Source: Glycomyces sp. L485 (GTDB lineage: Bacteria; Actinomycetota; Actinomycetes; Mycobacteriales; Micromonosporaceae). Taken from it: a DNA stretch of 64,000 bases. Shown piece by piece: positions 7,045-13,209 of the stretch. Location: positions 389-64,388 of the forward strand of contig NZ_JAKZEW010000023.1 of assembly GCF_022548875.1 (NCBI RefSeq). Reading direction: 5' to 3'. The notes beneath the pieces are model-generated. The model worked only from the letters and a program-made list of their open reading frames with translations, was not told the origin of the DNA and ran no database searches. Made by a program: the position numbers and the translations under genes. How positions within the stretch are numbered: position 1 is the first letter of the stretch; each line of letters starts with the position of its first letter.

Positions 7045-9213
7045 ATGTCTGGTGGAAAGCCTTTCGCACTGCCTGTGTTCTATCTTCCGTATCCCGCCCG
7101 ACTCAATCCGCATCTCGAACGCGCCCGCACGCACGCCCGGGTCTGGGCGAAGAAGATGGGCATGCTCGACGCCCCCGCCGCGGGAGGCGGGGTCATCTGG
7201 GACGAGGCCGAGCTGGAGCGCCACGACTACGGGCTGCTGTGCGCCTACACCCACCCCGACTGCGGTGGGGACGCGCTGGAGCTCATCACCGACTGGTACG
7301 TGTGGGTGTTCTTCTTCGACGACCACTTCCTGGAGGCGTTCAAGCGCACCCGCGACACGGCCGGGGCCAAGGCCTACCTCGACCGGATCCCGCTGTTCAT
7401 GCCGCTCGACCTCGGGCCGGTCCCCGAGCCGACCAATCCGGTCGAGCTCGGGCTGGACGACCTGTGGCGGCGCACCGCCCCCGACATGTCACCAGAATGG
7501 CGGGCCCGCTTCACGGTCAGCACCGTGAACCTCCTGATGGAGCCGCTGTGGGAGCTGGCGAACATCTCCACCGACCGGGTGGCCAACCCGATCGAGTACA
7601 TCGAGGTGCGCCGCAAGGTCGGCGGAGCGCCGTGGTCGGCGAACCTCGTCGAGTACGCCGTCGGCGCCGAGGTGCCCGACGCGATCGCCGCCGAACGGCC
7701 CCTGCGGGTCCTGCGCGACACCTTCGCCGACGCCGTCCACCTGCGAAACGACCTGTTGTCCTACGAGCGGGAGGTCACCACCGAGGGCGAGAACGCCAAC
7801 GCGGTGCTCGTCTTCGAGCGCTTCCTGGGCTGCGACACCCAGCGGGCGGCGGACCTGGTGGGCGACATCCTGACCTCGCGGCTCCACCAGTTCGAGAACA
7901 CCGCGCTCACCGAGGTGCCGCCGCTGTGCGCCGATCGCGGCGTCACGGCACCCGAGCAGACCGCGGTCGCCTTGTACGCCAAGGGGCTCCAGGACTGGCA
8001 GGCCGGCGGCCACGAATGGCACATGCGCTCCAGCCGTTACATGAACGACGCCGCCGACCGGGTGCTCGGCGGTCCTAACGGCCTGGGAACCTCCGCCGCC
8101 CGCGTCGCGGCCTCGGGGCCGAGGCAGCACGCCCGCACTCCGTTCAGGACGGTCGGGCCGACCCGGCTGCCCGAGATCTACCAGCCGTTCGCGCTGCGGC
8201 TCAGCCCGCACCTGGAGCGGACCCGGCGGCACAACACCGAGTGGGCCTCGCAGATCGGAATGCTCGCGCCGGACCCGCTGCGTCCGGGCTCGGGACTGTG
8301 GGACCGCAGGGGATTCGAGGGCATGGACCTCGCCCTGTGCGCGGCCGGCATCGACCCCGACGCCACGCCCGAGGAGCTCGACGCCTCCGCCGACTGGCTG
8401 GCCTGGGGCACCTACGGCGACGACTACTACCCGAGAGTGTTCGGCCGCGGGAGGGACCTGGCGGCGGCCGTGGCGCAGAACCGCCGGCTCTCGCAGTGCA
8501 TGCCGATCGATCTCGGCCCGGTCCCCGAGCCGGTCGGCCCGCTCGAAGCGGGCCTGACCGACCTGTGGCGACGCACGGCCTCCGGGCTGGGCGAGACGGG
8601 CCGCGCCGAGTTCAAGGCGGCCGTGGAGGCGATGCTCGAAGGCTGGCTGTGGGAGCTGCACTCCGCCGCGCAGAACCGGGTTCCCGACCCGGTCGACTAT
8701 GTCGAGATGCGCCGGGCCACGTTCGGCTCGGACATGACGATGAGCCTGGCTCGGCTCACCACCGGGCGACTCGTGCCCGACGAGGTCTACGCCTCCAGGC
8801 CGGTCCGCGAGCTGGAGAACAGCGTGGTAGACGCCGCCTGCCTCATCAACGACGTCTTCTCCTACCAGAAGGAGATCGAGTTCGAGGGCGAGTTCGTCAA
8901 CGGCGTCGCGGTCGCAGAGGAGTTCCTCGGATGCTCCAAGGACGAGGCCCTCGCCGTCGTGTGCGACCTCATCGCGGCGCGGCTCAAGCAGTTCGAGCTG
9001 ATCGCGGCGACCGAGATGCCGGTGGTGGCCCAGGAGGCGGGGCTGGACGCGTCGGCCCGCGAGGCCCTCGACGCCTACGTCGACGACCTGCGCTACTGGG
9101 TCGCGGCCATCCACAACTGGCACAAGGAGAGCACCCGCTACCACGAGGAGGAGCTCAGACGTCCGCCCGATCACGCGTCCGGCGTCCGACCGCCGCTCCT
9201 GCTCCGGTGGTGA
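7045..9213 (+). CDS. geoA: Geosmin synthase (two-domain germacradienol/geosmin terpene cyclase)
   Basis: The 722-residue enzyme cyclises farnesyl diphosphate to germacradienol (N-domain) and converts that to geosmin (C-domain). The N-domain has the Mg-binding D92-D-H-F-L-E97 and the NSE-type 'NDLLSYERE' (235-243). The C-domain repeats this with D459-D-Y-Y-P463 and 'NDVFSYQKE' (602-610). Phrases such as '[19 protein letters not shown]' and 'MRRATFGSD' follow known Streptomyces geosmin synthases closely. ATG 7045 is preferred to ATG 7006: the protein then starts like its relatives (short lead, '[19 protein letters not shown]') and GGAG lies 4 bases upstream. The TGA overlaps a following GTG start (GTGA). 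Expression may be tied to nitrogen control through the shared divergent promoter region. Confidence 0.96.
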
Positions 9214-9626
9214 CGGCGAAGGCGAACAGGACGGCGATCATCCGGCGCCTGGTGACCTCGGAGTCCGACGGGTCGTCCTCGGCCGCCCGCTCCGGGTCGT
9301 CGACCGCGAGCCCCGCAGGCATCGGACCGGGATCGACCGGTGTCGCCGAACGGCTCTTCCAGGCGCAGCGCGGCCTCACCGGTTCGATGTGGATCGTGCT
9401 GCTGCCGGGGGCGCTGCCGGTGCTCATCGTGTCGCTGACGCTCGGCACTCCGACGCGGCGCTTCCAGTTCGTACTCGTCGCGCTCATATCGGGGATGGTC
9501 GCTCTCCTGCTGTTCGCGACCTACCAGCCGGAATATCCGTTCAGCCGAGGCGGGGCCGTGCCGCCTGAGACCTACGAGACCGCATTGGACCGTTACGACG
9601 AGATCGATGCGCATTATACGGATTAA
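9210..9626 (+). CDS. Small two-helix membrane protein, DUF4239 C-terminal-like
   Basis: The 138-residue protein starts at a GTG that overlaps the geosmin synthase stop (GTGA), so it is probably translated by coupling. Residues ~1-55 are polar and Ser/Gly/Ala-rich. Two hydrophobic helices follow (about 60-82, '[20 protein letters not shown]', and 90-108, '[17 protein letters not shown]'), then '[22 protein letters not shown]'. That tail resembles the end of DUF4239 membrane proteins, which are normally about twice this length with four helices, so this looks like a C-terminal half. Its position between a terpene cyclase and an encapsulin suggests a role in product release or membrane association, but this is inference. 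Confidence 0.7.
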
Positions 9627-9639
9627 TGAACCTTTGGGG

Positions 9640-11141: not shown

Positions 11142-11216
11142 AGAGCCGGGCGGCCACGGGGAGTCCCGTGTCCGCCCGGCCGACCCCGATCCCGACTCGC
11201 AGACCTGGAGGCCCCA

Positions 11217-12229
11217 TGACCGTTCTGACCGACCGCTACGCCGCCGAGCGCGAGGCCATCGACGCAGGGCTGCGGTCCGCCGTCGACCGGCTTCCCGCGG
11301 CGGCATCCCGCGGTGCCGCCTACCACTTCGGCTGGACCGACGCCGCCGGAGCCGAGACCGGCCGCGGTTCCGGCAAGGCCCTGCGCCCGCTGCTGACGCT
11401 CCTGGCCGCCAAGGCCGCGGGCGGCGACTGGCGGGCCGCCGTCCCCGCGGCGGTGGCCGTGGAGCTGGTCCACAACTTCTCGCTCGTCCACGACGACATC
11501 ATCGACCGCGACGCCATGCGCCGGCACCGCCCGACCGTGTGGAAGGTCTTCGGCACCACCGAGGCGATCCTCATCGGTGACGCCATGCACGCCTTGGCCT
11601 TCGAGGTCCTGTCCGACCCCGGCGACGACCGTGCCGCGGTCGGGGCCGGGCAGCTCGCCGCGACCGTGCGGACCCTGGTCGAGGGCCAGCTGGCCGACAC
11701 GGTCTTCGAGCGGCGCGAGCACGTCGGCCTGGCCGAGTGCATCGCGATGTCGGAGGCGAAGACCGCCTCACTCATGGGCTGCGCGACCTCGCTCGGCGCA
11801 CTGTACGGAGGCGGGAGCGAGACGCAGGTGCGGGCGCTGCGTGACTTCGGTCTACGGCTGGGCCTGGCGTTCCAGCACGTCGACGACCTGCTCGGCATCT
11901 GGGGCGACCCGGAGGTCACCGGGAAGTCGGTGTACTCGGACCTGCGCAACCGCAAGAGATCGCTGCCGGTGACGGCGGCGCTCGGCTCGGTCGGTCCCGA
12001 GGCCGCCGAACTGGCGCGGCTCTACCGCGGCACGGCCCCGCTCGACGAATCGCAGCTGCGGCGCGCCGCCGAACTGGTCGAGGCCTGCGGCGGCAGGAGC
12101 GCCAGCGAGTCCGCCGCCGCGAGGCTCGCCGCGGCGGCCTCTGCGGCCCTCGCGACCGCCGGCCTGCGGCCCGAGGTCGTCGAGGAGCTCGACGGCGTCG
12201 CAGCGAGCACGGTGGGGAGGACGCGGTGA
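11217..12229 (+). CDS. Polyprenyl (likely farnesyl/geranylgeranyl) diphosphate synthase, probable encapsulin cargo
   Basis: A 336-residue all-helical isoprenyl diphosphate synthase. The first Asp-rich motif is D93-D-I-I-D97, followed by '[16 protein letters not shown]', a wording I associate with the polyprenyl transferases that accompany Family 2 encapsulins; the second Asp-rich motif is 'DDLLGIWGD' (223-231). Phe five residues before the first motif suggests a limited chain length (C15 more than C20), which would feed the geosmin synthase, but this is inference. No long disordered targeting tail is present, only a short '[14 protein letters not shown]' N-terminus, so how it would be loaded is unclear. 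Its stop overlaps the ispH start by ATGA. Confidence 0.9.
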
Positions 12230-13209
12230 GCCGGCCCCGGCGAGTCCTGCTGCCGTCCCCGCGGTCGTTCTGCGCGGGCGTGGAGCGGGCCATCGACATC
12301 GTGGAGCGCCTGTTGGAGCGGCACGGCCCGCCGGTCTACGTGCGCAACCAGATCGTCCACAACGCCCACGTCGTGGGCGGGTTGGAGTCCCGGGGCGTGG
12401 TCTTCGTGTCCGACCTCGACGAGGTCCCCAAGGACGCCCCGGTCGTGTTCTCGGCACACGGCGTGGCCCCGGCGGTGGAGTCCGAGGCCGCTAGGCGGGG
12501 ACTGGACGCGGTCGACGCGACGTGCCCACTGGTGTCGAAGGTCCACGCCGAAGCGGGGAGGGCGGCCGACGCCGGGGACACCGTAGTCCTCATCGGACAC
12601 GCCGGGCACGAGGAGGTCGTCGGCACCATGGGCGTCGCCCCGGAGCTGACGGTGCTGGTGGAGGGGGTCGAGGACGCCGAACGCCTGGTCGTCCCCGACC
12701 CCGACCGGCTCACCTACCTGGCGCAGACGACGTTGGCCGTTGCCGAGGTCGAGCGGATCGCGGCCGCGCTGCGGCGGCGCTTCCCGAAGATCAAGGCCCC
12801 GAAGACCGACGACGTCTGCTACGCCACCACGAACCGCCAGGCCGCTCTGGCGGCAGTGGTGGACGAGGCGGACCTGGTGCTCGTGGTCGGCTCGGTGAAC
12901 TCCTCGAACTCGAACCGGCTCGTGGAGCTGGCGTGCGAGTCGGGCACCGAGGCGCGCTTGATCGACGGTGCGCACGAGATCGACCCGCGCTGGCTGGCGT
13001 CCGCCGGCACCGTGGCGGTCACCGCCGGAGCCTCGGCCCCGCCTCCCCTGGTAGACGAGGTGGTGTCGGTGATAGCGAGCCTTGGCCCGATCGAGGTCGT
13101 GGAGCGCAGCGTCGCCGAGGAGCAAGTGGAATTCCTGCTCCCCCAGCGCCTCCGCAAACCAGAGGCGGTCACCCGCGGCGAACCGACCGACGTTCCCAGA
13201 GGTCCGTAG
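12226..13209 (+). CDS. ispH: 4-Hydroxy-3-methylbut-2-enyl diphosphate reductase
   Basis: IspH (LytB) is the iron-sulfur enzyme of the last MEP-pathway step, yielding IPP and DMAPP. The 327-residue protein keeps the three cluster cysteines: C16 in 'SFCAGV', C100 in 'DATCPLV', and C198 in '[10 protein letters not shown]'. The '[11 protein letters not shown]' and '[13 protein letters not shown]' segments with the catalytic Glu are also present. It starts inside the polyprenyl synthase stop (ATGA), so the two are co-translated and together would convert HMBPP into prenyl diphosphate. A second, housekeeping ispH elsewhere in the genome is possible. It is convergent with the nitrate reductase gene. 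Confidence 0.95.

What the first reader, a model, noticed from the sequence alone, without database searches (positions are those of the whole stretch)
7045..13209. Candidate encapsulin nanocompartment linked to geosmin and prenyl diphosphate synthesis
Seen: geosmin synthase, a small membrane protein, a Family 2B encapsulin shell protein with a cNMP-like domain, a polyprenyl diphosphate synthase with the 'HRPTVW' motif, and IspH, all on the plus strand, several pairs coupled by ATGA or GTGA overlaps. Known: Family 2 encapsulins enclose terpene cyclases (notably 2-methylisoborneol synthase) or polyprenyl transferases. Inference: the locus could make C15 prenyl diphosphate inside or beside a shell and pass it to geosmin synthase. 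Geosmin synthase next to an encapsulin, with both a cyclase and a prenyl synthase as possible cargo plus IspH, would be a distinct operon type.
Basis: partly seen in the sequence, partly recalled or inferred. Interest (0 to 1): 0.85.

Follow-up and report, generated by a model that had tools for sequence, protein, structure and literature searches.

The report
Geosmin gene cluster with encapsulin shell
A soil actinomycete carries the gene for the earthy-smell enzyme geosmin synthase beside genes for a virus-like protein shell and for making its substrate; this is a known kind of cluster, but wider searches suggest that such shells and geosmin go together more strictly than described.

Summary
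The genes are real. A Glycomyces-like actinomycete encodes geosmin synthase (GS), a Family 2B encapsulin shell, a polyprenyl diphosphate synthase (PT) and IspH, all on the plus strand. One part is wrong: the 'small membrane protein' is the 3' remnant of a DUF4239 gene, left by a deletion of about 0.9 kb; all 8 other Glycomyces loci read have the gene full length.

The operon type is not new: GS-like cyclases and PTs as Family 2B cargo, and 165 loci with both, were published in 2021 (PMC8346489). GS keeps the putative cargo tag between its domains ([11 protein letters not shown]) but lacks the C-terminal copy. PT lacks the long disordered N-terminus reported for cargo PTs. GS is therefore the likelier cargo.

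New from whole-genome searches: all 291 distinct GS-positive actinomycete genomes examined hold a Family 2 shell gene or assembly fragments of one, although GS is often unlinked to it. In the class sample, 46 genomes have a listed PT-shell pair and all are GS-positive. Of 14 GS-negative genomes whose Family 2B-like shell was read, 12 have a 2-methylisoborneol-synthase-like cyclase there and none a PT. This raises, without proving, that 'PT-type' shells are geosmin compartments loaded in cis or trans.

The parts
7045..9213 (+). germacradienol/geosmin synthase (GS), two terpene-synthase domains; alternative start 7006
   Evidence: PF19086 in two stretches 1.6e-105; NF041168 f2_encap_cargo3 1115.9 bits, cut-off 1200; best PDB match geosmin synthase 5dw7/5dz2; [29 protein letters not shown] present
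8071..8103 (+). interdomain putative cargo-loading motif [11 protein letters not shown] (GS residues 343-353)
   Evidence: consensus [11 protein letters not shown] published in PMC8346489
9210..9626 (+). chimeric 138-aa ORF: from about 9348 on, the C-terminal part of a DUF4239/bestrophin-like membrane protein; before about 9336, antisense to the remnant of a minus-strand gene; probably not functional
   Evidence: Pfam PF14023 positions 156-231 only; deletion against L001 and L002; full-length gene in 8 of 8 relatives
9336..9348 (.). junction of a deletion of about 0.94 kb relative to Glycomyces tenuis
   Evidence: blastn breakpoints
9720..11141 (+). Family 2B encapsulin shell protein, 473 aa, the only shell gene found in the genome
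   Evidence: NF041163 encap_f2b 764 bits, cut-off 400; PF19307 461 bits; solved relatives 9bix, 9bhu, 9bje; single shell hit in G000
10080..10343 (+). cNMP-binding domain inside the shell protein (residues 121-208)
   Evidence: PF00027 5.6e-15
11216..12229 (+). polyprenyl diphosphate synthase / 'polyprenyl transferase' (PT), 337 aa, no long N-terminal extension
   Evidence: PF00348 7.9e-56; NF041169 f2_encap_cargo4 421 bits, cut-off 450; N-terminus compared
12226..13209 (+). IspH (HMBPP reductase), one of two copies in the genome
   Evidence: TIGR00216 299.5 bits, cut-off 187.85; other copy at G000:C132, 50% identical
12226..12229 (+). GTGA stop/start overlap PT-IspH
   Evidence: sequence

Best explanation
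The locus is a single-shell Family 2B encapsulin cluster for geosmin. The shell protein most likely assembles into a compartment that takes up geosmin synthase through its interdomain [11 protein letters not shown] tag. The PT, and IspH before it in the pathway, supply prenyl diphosphate (farnesyl diphosphate is the substrate GS needs) from outside the shell or at its surface, and the cNMP domain of the shell may gate traffic or activity. Shown here: gene content, domain integrity, conservation of order in Glycomyces, conservation of the tag, and genome-wide co-occurrence of GS with Family 2 shells. Inferred: assembly, encapsulation of GS, the direction of substrate flow, the PT product length, and any role of cNMP.
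For: Order GS..shell-PT-IspH is kept in 8 of 8 other named Glycomyces loci and in G011. GS+PT+IspH+shell clusters also occur in other genera: L011, L174, L175, L178, L179, L184, L187, L203 and, with a more distant PT, L205. GS beside a shell with no PT in the DNA read occurs in other families (L186, L189, L201, L202), and 34 of 40 class genomes with linked GS have no listed PT-shell pair, so GS alone can partner a shell. The tag is kept in 11 of 11 Glycomyces GS, the window's included, and a tag-like match exists in 45 of 48 shell-linked GS. All 291 distinct GS-positive genomes have a shell gene or fragments of one. PT here lacks the 50-100 residue extension reported for cargo PTs, as do, by eye, most PTs outside Streptomyces (published feature). 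No other shell was found in the genome.
Against: No experiment. The C-terminal repeat of the tag, part of the published GS cargo signature, is absent in all 11 Glycomyces GS, and GS (1116 of 1200) and PT (421 of 450) both fall below the NCBIfam cargo cut-offs. The tag is not more conserved than the segment before it (0.91 against 0.96; 0.79 after it). The tag is nearly as common in unlinked GS (29 of 34), so it does not tell linked from unlinked. In other Glycomyces an antisense gene lies between GS and the shell. GS and shell presence share ancestry, and the Fisher values do not correct for it.
Confidence: 0.55

Rival explanations
1. PT is the true cargo, the shell makes or handles a different prenyl product, and GS is only a neighbour using the FPP pool.
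For: PT is directly downstream of the shell, and PT-shell pairs without nearby GS are common (17 of 20 shell loci read from unlinked-GS genomes; 17 of the 80 loci, counted). PT systems are a published cargo class.
Against: In the class sample all 46 genomes with a listed PT-shell pair also have GS, and none of the 302 GS-negative genomes showed one. The window PT lacks the N-terminal extension. GS-shell pairs exist without PT nearby.
Confidence: 0.2
2. Both GS and PT are loaded into one shell, which channels C5 units to geosmin inside the compartment.
For: Single shell gene with both partners. A GS-linked and a mostly PT-linked Streptomyces shell clade are sisters, as if one shell type can serve both.
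Against: No tag or extension was recognised on PT; two clade-level partners do not show joint loading.
Confidence: 0.17
3. The genes sit together for regulatory or historical reasons (a conserved block between nitrate-assimilation genes) and the shell does not act on GS or PT.
For: The cluster is embedded in a nirB/oxidoreductase...nasA/narK block conserved in Glycomyces. An antisense gene and DUF4239 separate GS from the shell in relatives.
Against: The association recurs in many genera with different gene orders and as genome-level co-occurrence without linkage.
Confidence: 0.08

Closest known systems
Family 2B TC/PT encapsulin systems (Andreas and Giessen 2021, PMC8346489; section 8 read, part 1 of 2, plus passages)
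   Same: Family 2B shell with GS-like cyclase and PT in one gene cluster; precursor-pathway genes near PT; interdomain [15 protein letters not shown] motif.
   Different: C-terminal copy of the motif missing; PT without long disordered N-terminus; IspH coupled to PT by GTGA (IspH is not named in that paper's main text).
Two-component TC/PT operons, Enc1-TC-Enc2-PT (PMC12407261; introduction and section 2.1 read)
   Same: GS upstream and PT downstream of a shell gene; L011, L175 and L203 here have this order with IspH.
   Different: Only one shell gene here. In the shell tree the window protein falls in a single-shell lineage (Glycomyces clade, SH-aLRT 99; with Streptomyces single shells, 95) that holds no Enc1 or Enc2 row.
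geoA-cnb-cnb geosmin clusters of cyanobacteria and deltaproteobacteria (PMC7251104, passages seen) and encapsulins in all geosmin clusters of Myxococcota (PMC12224551, one passage seen)
   Same: GS next to cNMP-binding-domain proteins of 469 and 471 aa, i.e. Family 2B shells by today's families (inference; L065 and L074 are such loci).
   Different: Two shells and no PT or IspH in the described core; the 2020 paper calls the arrangement not widely conserved in Actinobacteria.
2-methylisoborneol synthase encapsulin
   Same: Terpene cyclase with a GLGT-type motif beside a Family 2B shell (L017 protein).
   Different: Single-domain cyclase with a long N-terminus. The experimental shell-loading paper is recalled only; it is not held.

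Membership tests
Family 2B encapsulin shell | HK97-type SrpI-like shell domain | tested here: met
   PF19307 residues 224-473, 6.8e-139
Family 2B encapsulin shell | internal cNMP-binding domain | tested here: met
   PF00027 residues 121-208
Family 2B encapsulin shell | score above the curated NCBIfam cut-off | tested here: met
   NF041163 764 against 400
Family 2B encapsulin shell | assembles into closed shells | not testable with these tools
   needs expression and electron microscopy
GS-like Family 2B cargo (terpene cyclase) | two terpene cyclase domains with metal motifs | tested here: met
GS-like Family 2B cargo (terpene cyclase) | [15 protein letters not shown] motif between the domains | tested here: met
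   [11 protein letters not shown] at residue 343
GS-like Family 2B cargo (terpene cyclase) | the motif repeated at the C-terminus | tested here: not met
   no canonical copy in the window or in 10 other Glycomyces GS
GS-like Family 2B cargo (terpene cyclase) | score above NF041168 cut-off | tested here: not met
   1115.9 against 1200
Family 2B PT cargo | disordered N-terminal domain of 50-100 residues | tested here: not met
   the 74-nt gap to the shell leaves at most 24 more codons before ATG 11216
Family 2B PT cargo | score above NF041169 cut-off | tested here: not met
   421.4 against 450
Two-component Family 2B operon | two shell genes within 10 kb | tested here: not met
   one shell hit in the whole genome; the two other hits cover only residues 67-220, around the cNMP domain
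IspH (LytB) | curated family score | tested here: met
   TIGR00216 299.5 against 187.85

The most novel reading that the evidence does not exclude
In Actinomycetes the Family 2B shells now filed as 'polyprenyl transferase systems' are geosmin compartments: GS depends on a Family 2 shell wherever it occurs, is loaded in cis when linked (as in this window) and in trans when its gene lies elsewhere, and the PT beside the shell feeds it. Supporting pattern: 291 of 291 distinct GS-positive genomes examined have a Family 2 shell gene or assembly fragments of one; 46 of 46 class-sample genomes with a listed PT-shell pair are GS-positive and none was found in 302 GS-negative ones; of 14 GS-negative genomes whose Family 2B-like shell was read, 12 have a 2-MIBS-like cyclase there and none a PT.
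Probability: 0.38. Interest if true: 0.75.

Novelty: new member of a known kind. Interest (0 to 1): 0.52.

Why it matters
Geosmin is a widespread earthy odorant and a drinking-water off-flavour (established knowledge). Why its synthase so often sits beside a virus-derived shell has, in the papers seen here, been proposed but not tested. If GS always travels with a shell, then geosmin biosynthesis in actinomycetes is compartmentalised by rule, and many shell loci described as prenyltransferase systems, or as having no obvious cargo, gain a concrete candidate cargo encoded elsewhere. This Glycomyces cluster is a compact one-shell, one-GS, one-PT version in which cargo choice can be tested without a second shell gene.

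Tried and rejected
One operon from GS to IspH as the shared state: rejected, because other Glycomyces have an antisense gene and a full DUF4239 between GS and the shell. Window shell as a leftover Enc2 of an Enc1-GS-Enc2-PT operon: not supported by the shell tree (quick method, 17 open forks, some long branches). Tag presence as a marker of linkage: rejected, 45 of 48 linked against 29 of 34 unlinked have a relaxed match; the relaxed pattern also accepts non-canonical tails, so these counts are upper bounds. PT N-terminal extension as a marker of GS-unlinked shells: mixed; judged by eye, long extensions are mainly in Streptomyces. PT presence alone as a GS marker: rejected, PT relatives at E <= 1e-55 occur in 118 of 394 genomes, 90 of 92 with GS and 28 of 302 without. 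GS-negative genomes with both a PT relative and a shell hit: three (G142, G145, G249), a possible counter-example to the novel case; in the DNA read (up to 20 kb) none has PT and shell together, and the G142 shell matches outside the cNMP domain only. Unlinked-GS genomes without a listed PT-shell pair: 12 of 52; one of them (G202) has a pair on inspection. Eight others (G149, G292, G310, G343, G367, G414, G429, G450) have tandem shell pairs without GS, PT, IspH or MIBS beside the pair; in one an FGGY kinase is adjacent (L241), and the flanking ORFs scanned in L237, L240, L242-L244, L246 and L247 gave no known cargo class, but not every flanking ORF was scanned. These eight do not fit a simple PT-shell rule. 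In G300 and G366 the held contig ends soon after the shell, and G374 shows none of the query genes. Promoter, terminator and Rfam scans gave no regulatory element that I rely on. Not done or incomplete: the phage, plasmid, E. coli and viral collections were not searched; no structure prediction was run; Myxococcota and Cyanobacteria could not be sampled with the genome search. The place lists are truncated, so linkage counts are lower bounds. The 20 shell loci were my choice, mostly genomes with a single shell hit. Of the 25 GS-positive family genomes, a shell neighbourhood was read in 20 (in G040 and G054 not every shell).
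Full report
WHAT IS THERE. The window lies in a 4.4 Mb Glycomyces-like genome in 151 contigs (nearest named relatives Glycomyces tenuis 85% and G. arizonensis 83% in the shell protein). On the plus strand are GS (7045-9213), a 138-aa ORF (9210-9626), a Family 2B encapsulin shell protein (9720-11141), a polyprenyl diphosphate synthase (PT, 11216-12229) and IspH (12226-13209). 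GS has both metal-binding motif pairs, PT both Asp-rich motifs, and IspH its three cysteine segments (the meaning of these motifs is recalled knowledge). The shell scores 764 bits against a cut-off of 400 for Family 2B and carries the cNMP domain. GS and PT score below the cut-offs of the NCBIfam models for Family 2 cargo (1116 of 1200; 421 of 450). The genome has no second shell gene, two more distant prenyl synthase relatives (33% identity each) and a second IspH (50% identity).

A CORRECTION. The 'small membrane protein' is a remnant. In G. tenuis and G. arizonensis about 1.1 kb separates GS from the homologous part; it holds a minus-strand gene for a secreted-looking Pro/Ser-rich protein and the 5' two thirds of a DUF4239 gene of about 261 aa. 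The window aligns to L001 as 9000-9336 and 9348 onward, with about 0.94 kb missing between. The PT-IspH GTGA overlap is genuine.

CONSERVATION IN GLYCOMYCES. GS, then DUF4239, shell, PT and IspH occur in this order in 8 of 8 other named Glycomyces loci (L001-L007, L009) and in G011; in G049 GS and shell lie on two contigs that break between them. The flanks, nitrite reductase and an FAD oxidoreductase on one side and nitrate reductase and a nitrate transporter on the other, were found on both sides in 7 of the 8 named loci; in L003 only the nitrate reductase side matched. The interdomain motif GPNG[LIV]GT is kept in 11 of 11 Glycomyces GS, the window's included; the canonical C-terminal repeat is absent in all 11.

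OTHER GENERA. Clusters holding GS, PT, IspH and one or two shells are also in L011 and in L174, L175, L178, L179, L184, L187, L203 and L205 (the PT of L205 is only 31% identical). Among the 80 loci fetched by shell similarity (the best 80 of 524) the neighbours were: 34 shell+2-MIBS-like, 17 shell+PT, 8 shell+GS+PT+IspH (all Glycomyces), 6 shell+GS, 2 double shell+GS (both cyanobacterial), 3 other double-shell mixes with GS or PT, and 10 with none of the query genes in the DNA held, one of them a double shell. In the shell tree (90 rows, quick method) Glycomyces shells form one clade (99), sister to the PT- and IspH-linked shell of G013, whose GS lies 170 kb away. This group joins Streptomycetaceae single shells (95), in which a GS-linked clade is sister to a clade that is PT-linked except for one row, L073, which is GS-linked. 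Other PT-linked and GS-linked single shells lie elsewhere in the tree.

GENOME-LEVEL CO-OCCURRENCE. Family sample (61 genomes): GS (at least 480 bits) in 25, strong shell hits in the same 25 and in 2 of 36 others; Fisher p 4e-15. In the four genera of this sample where two genomes differ in GS (g7, g12, g23, g31) the shell differs the same way in 4 of 4; in two more genera (g11, g29) the shell differs while GS is absent from both genomes (read). Class sample (394): GS in 92, Family 2 shell hits (E <= 1e-60) in 92 of 92 and in 23 of 302 others; p 2e-68. Of those 23, eight are strong Family 2B hits, G189 is a divergent full-length match, and 14 are weaker (E 1e-70 to 4e-82); the two of these looked at (G066, G142) match shell-domain residues only, as Family 2A would. 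Three of the 92 had partial shell hits (G079, G158, G349): G158 and G349 are cut by contig ends, and G079 has a shell without the cNMP domain directly beside GS. G231 matched in two adjoining pieces. Streptomycetaceae sample (220; GS E <= 1e-90, shell E <= 1e-100): both genes in 213, neither in 3 (G460, G462, G617), shell only in 3 (G623, and G513 and G557, 76% and 71% complete), GS only in 1 (G527); G527 has three shell fragments on three contigs, at least two of them at contig ends. Distinct GS-positive genomes over the three samples: 291 (25 + 92 + 214 minus 1 and 39 shared). The Fisher values ignore relatedness, and most Streptomycetaceae have both genes.

LINKAGE AND PARTNERS. GS lies within 10 kb of a shell in 40 of 92 class genomes and 16 of 25 family genomes (17 of 25 if G049, split between contigs, is counted). 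Of 20 shell loci that I picked from genomes with unlinked GS, 17 have PT next to the shell. From listed hits, 46 class genomes have a PT-shell pair and all 46 are GS-positive: 40 of 52 with unlinked and 6 of 40 with linked GS. By my reading of the lists, 29 of the 46 are Streptomycetaceae, where GS is nearly universal, and 17 are not. Among the 302 GS-negative class genomes, 28 have a PT relative and 3 of these also a shell hit (G142, G145, G249); no PT-shell pair was seen in the DNA read around them. In the family sample, of 20 GS-positive genomes with a shell neighbourhood read, 17 have PT beside a shell (window). GS-negative genomes with Family 2B-like shells read: 14. Ten (two of the family sample, eight of the class sample) and G623 have a 2-MIBS-like cyclase there and no PT; the incomplete G513 has a broken shell beside a 2-MIBS-like gene and another with none; G189 (86% complete) and the incomplete G557 show no query gene nearby.

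MECHANISM. Farnesyl diphosphate is the GS substrate (established knowledge). IspH makes IPP and DMAPP and PT condenses them; PT chain length is not settled, since the best product-specific model (GGPP synthase IdsB) is below its cut-off (317 of 475). Because GS carries the tag and PT carries no long extension, I place GS inside and PT outside or at the shell. This is inference.

WHAT IS KNOWN. PMC8346489 (section 8, part 1 of 2, and passages): 904 TC and 900 PT Family 2B operons, 165 with both; GS-like cyclases with [11 protein letters not shown] between the domains and at the C-terminus; PTs with N-terminal disordered regions of 50-100 residues. PMC12407261 (introduction, section 2.1): TC/PT two-shell operons, and two-shell operons without obvious cargo. 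PMC12224551 (one passage): encapsulins in all geosmin clusters of Myxococcota. PMC7251104 (passages): geoA followed by two cnb genes in cyanobacteria and deltaproteobacteria, an arrangement not widely conserved in Actinobacteria. A library search for 'encapsulin' with 'geosmin' gave 5 papers, 3 listed (parts of two read, the third, PMC9964548, not opened). Titles and abstract starts in further searches showed nothing that ties PT-type shells to GS across genomes. The library lacks most subscription papers and the 2-MIB shell paper, so this is not proof that it is unpublished.

VERDICT. The locus is a new member of a published kind. The stronger lead is the genome-wide pattern, which the window locus illustrates in linked form.

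Noticed in passing
L188:6465-7415 (-), genome G079: A geosmin synthase gene directly beside a Family 2B-like shell (423 bits, cut-off 400) with no cNMP domain in Pfam; published terpene-cyclase shells are 2B. The domain was apparently lost.
   Followed up: partly
window 9770-10279 (-): Rfam RF02735 (Saccharopolyspora sRNA 350, antisense) matches at 120.7 bits (gathering 50) antisense to the 5' part of the shell gene; the family may only reflect the shell coding sequence, or be a conserved antisense RNA.
   Followed up: no
window 9155-9487 (-): Remnant of a minus-strand gene for a secreted-looking Pro/Ser-rich protein, intact between GS and DUF4239 in the four other Glycomyces loci read for it, truncated here by the deletion.
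   Followed up: partly
window 2845-6743 (-) and 13260-16838 (-): The terpenoid cluster is embedded between nitrite reductase/FAD oxidoreductase and nitrate reductase/NarK-type transporter genes, an arrangement shared by other Glycomyces.
   Followed up: partly
L237, L240, L242-L244, L246, L247 (Streptomycetaceae genomes): Tandem shell pairs without terpene cyclase, PT or IspH nearby in GS-positive genomes whose GS is elsewhere; flanking genes scanned include a GAF protein, phosphoketolase, a TerD protein and a phosphodiester glycosidase.
   Followed up: partly
L200 (G040:C11): 2-MIBS-like cyclase, GS and a divergent shell side by side, with IspH nearby on the other strand.
   Followed up: no
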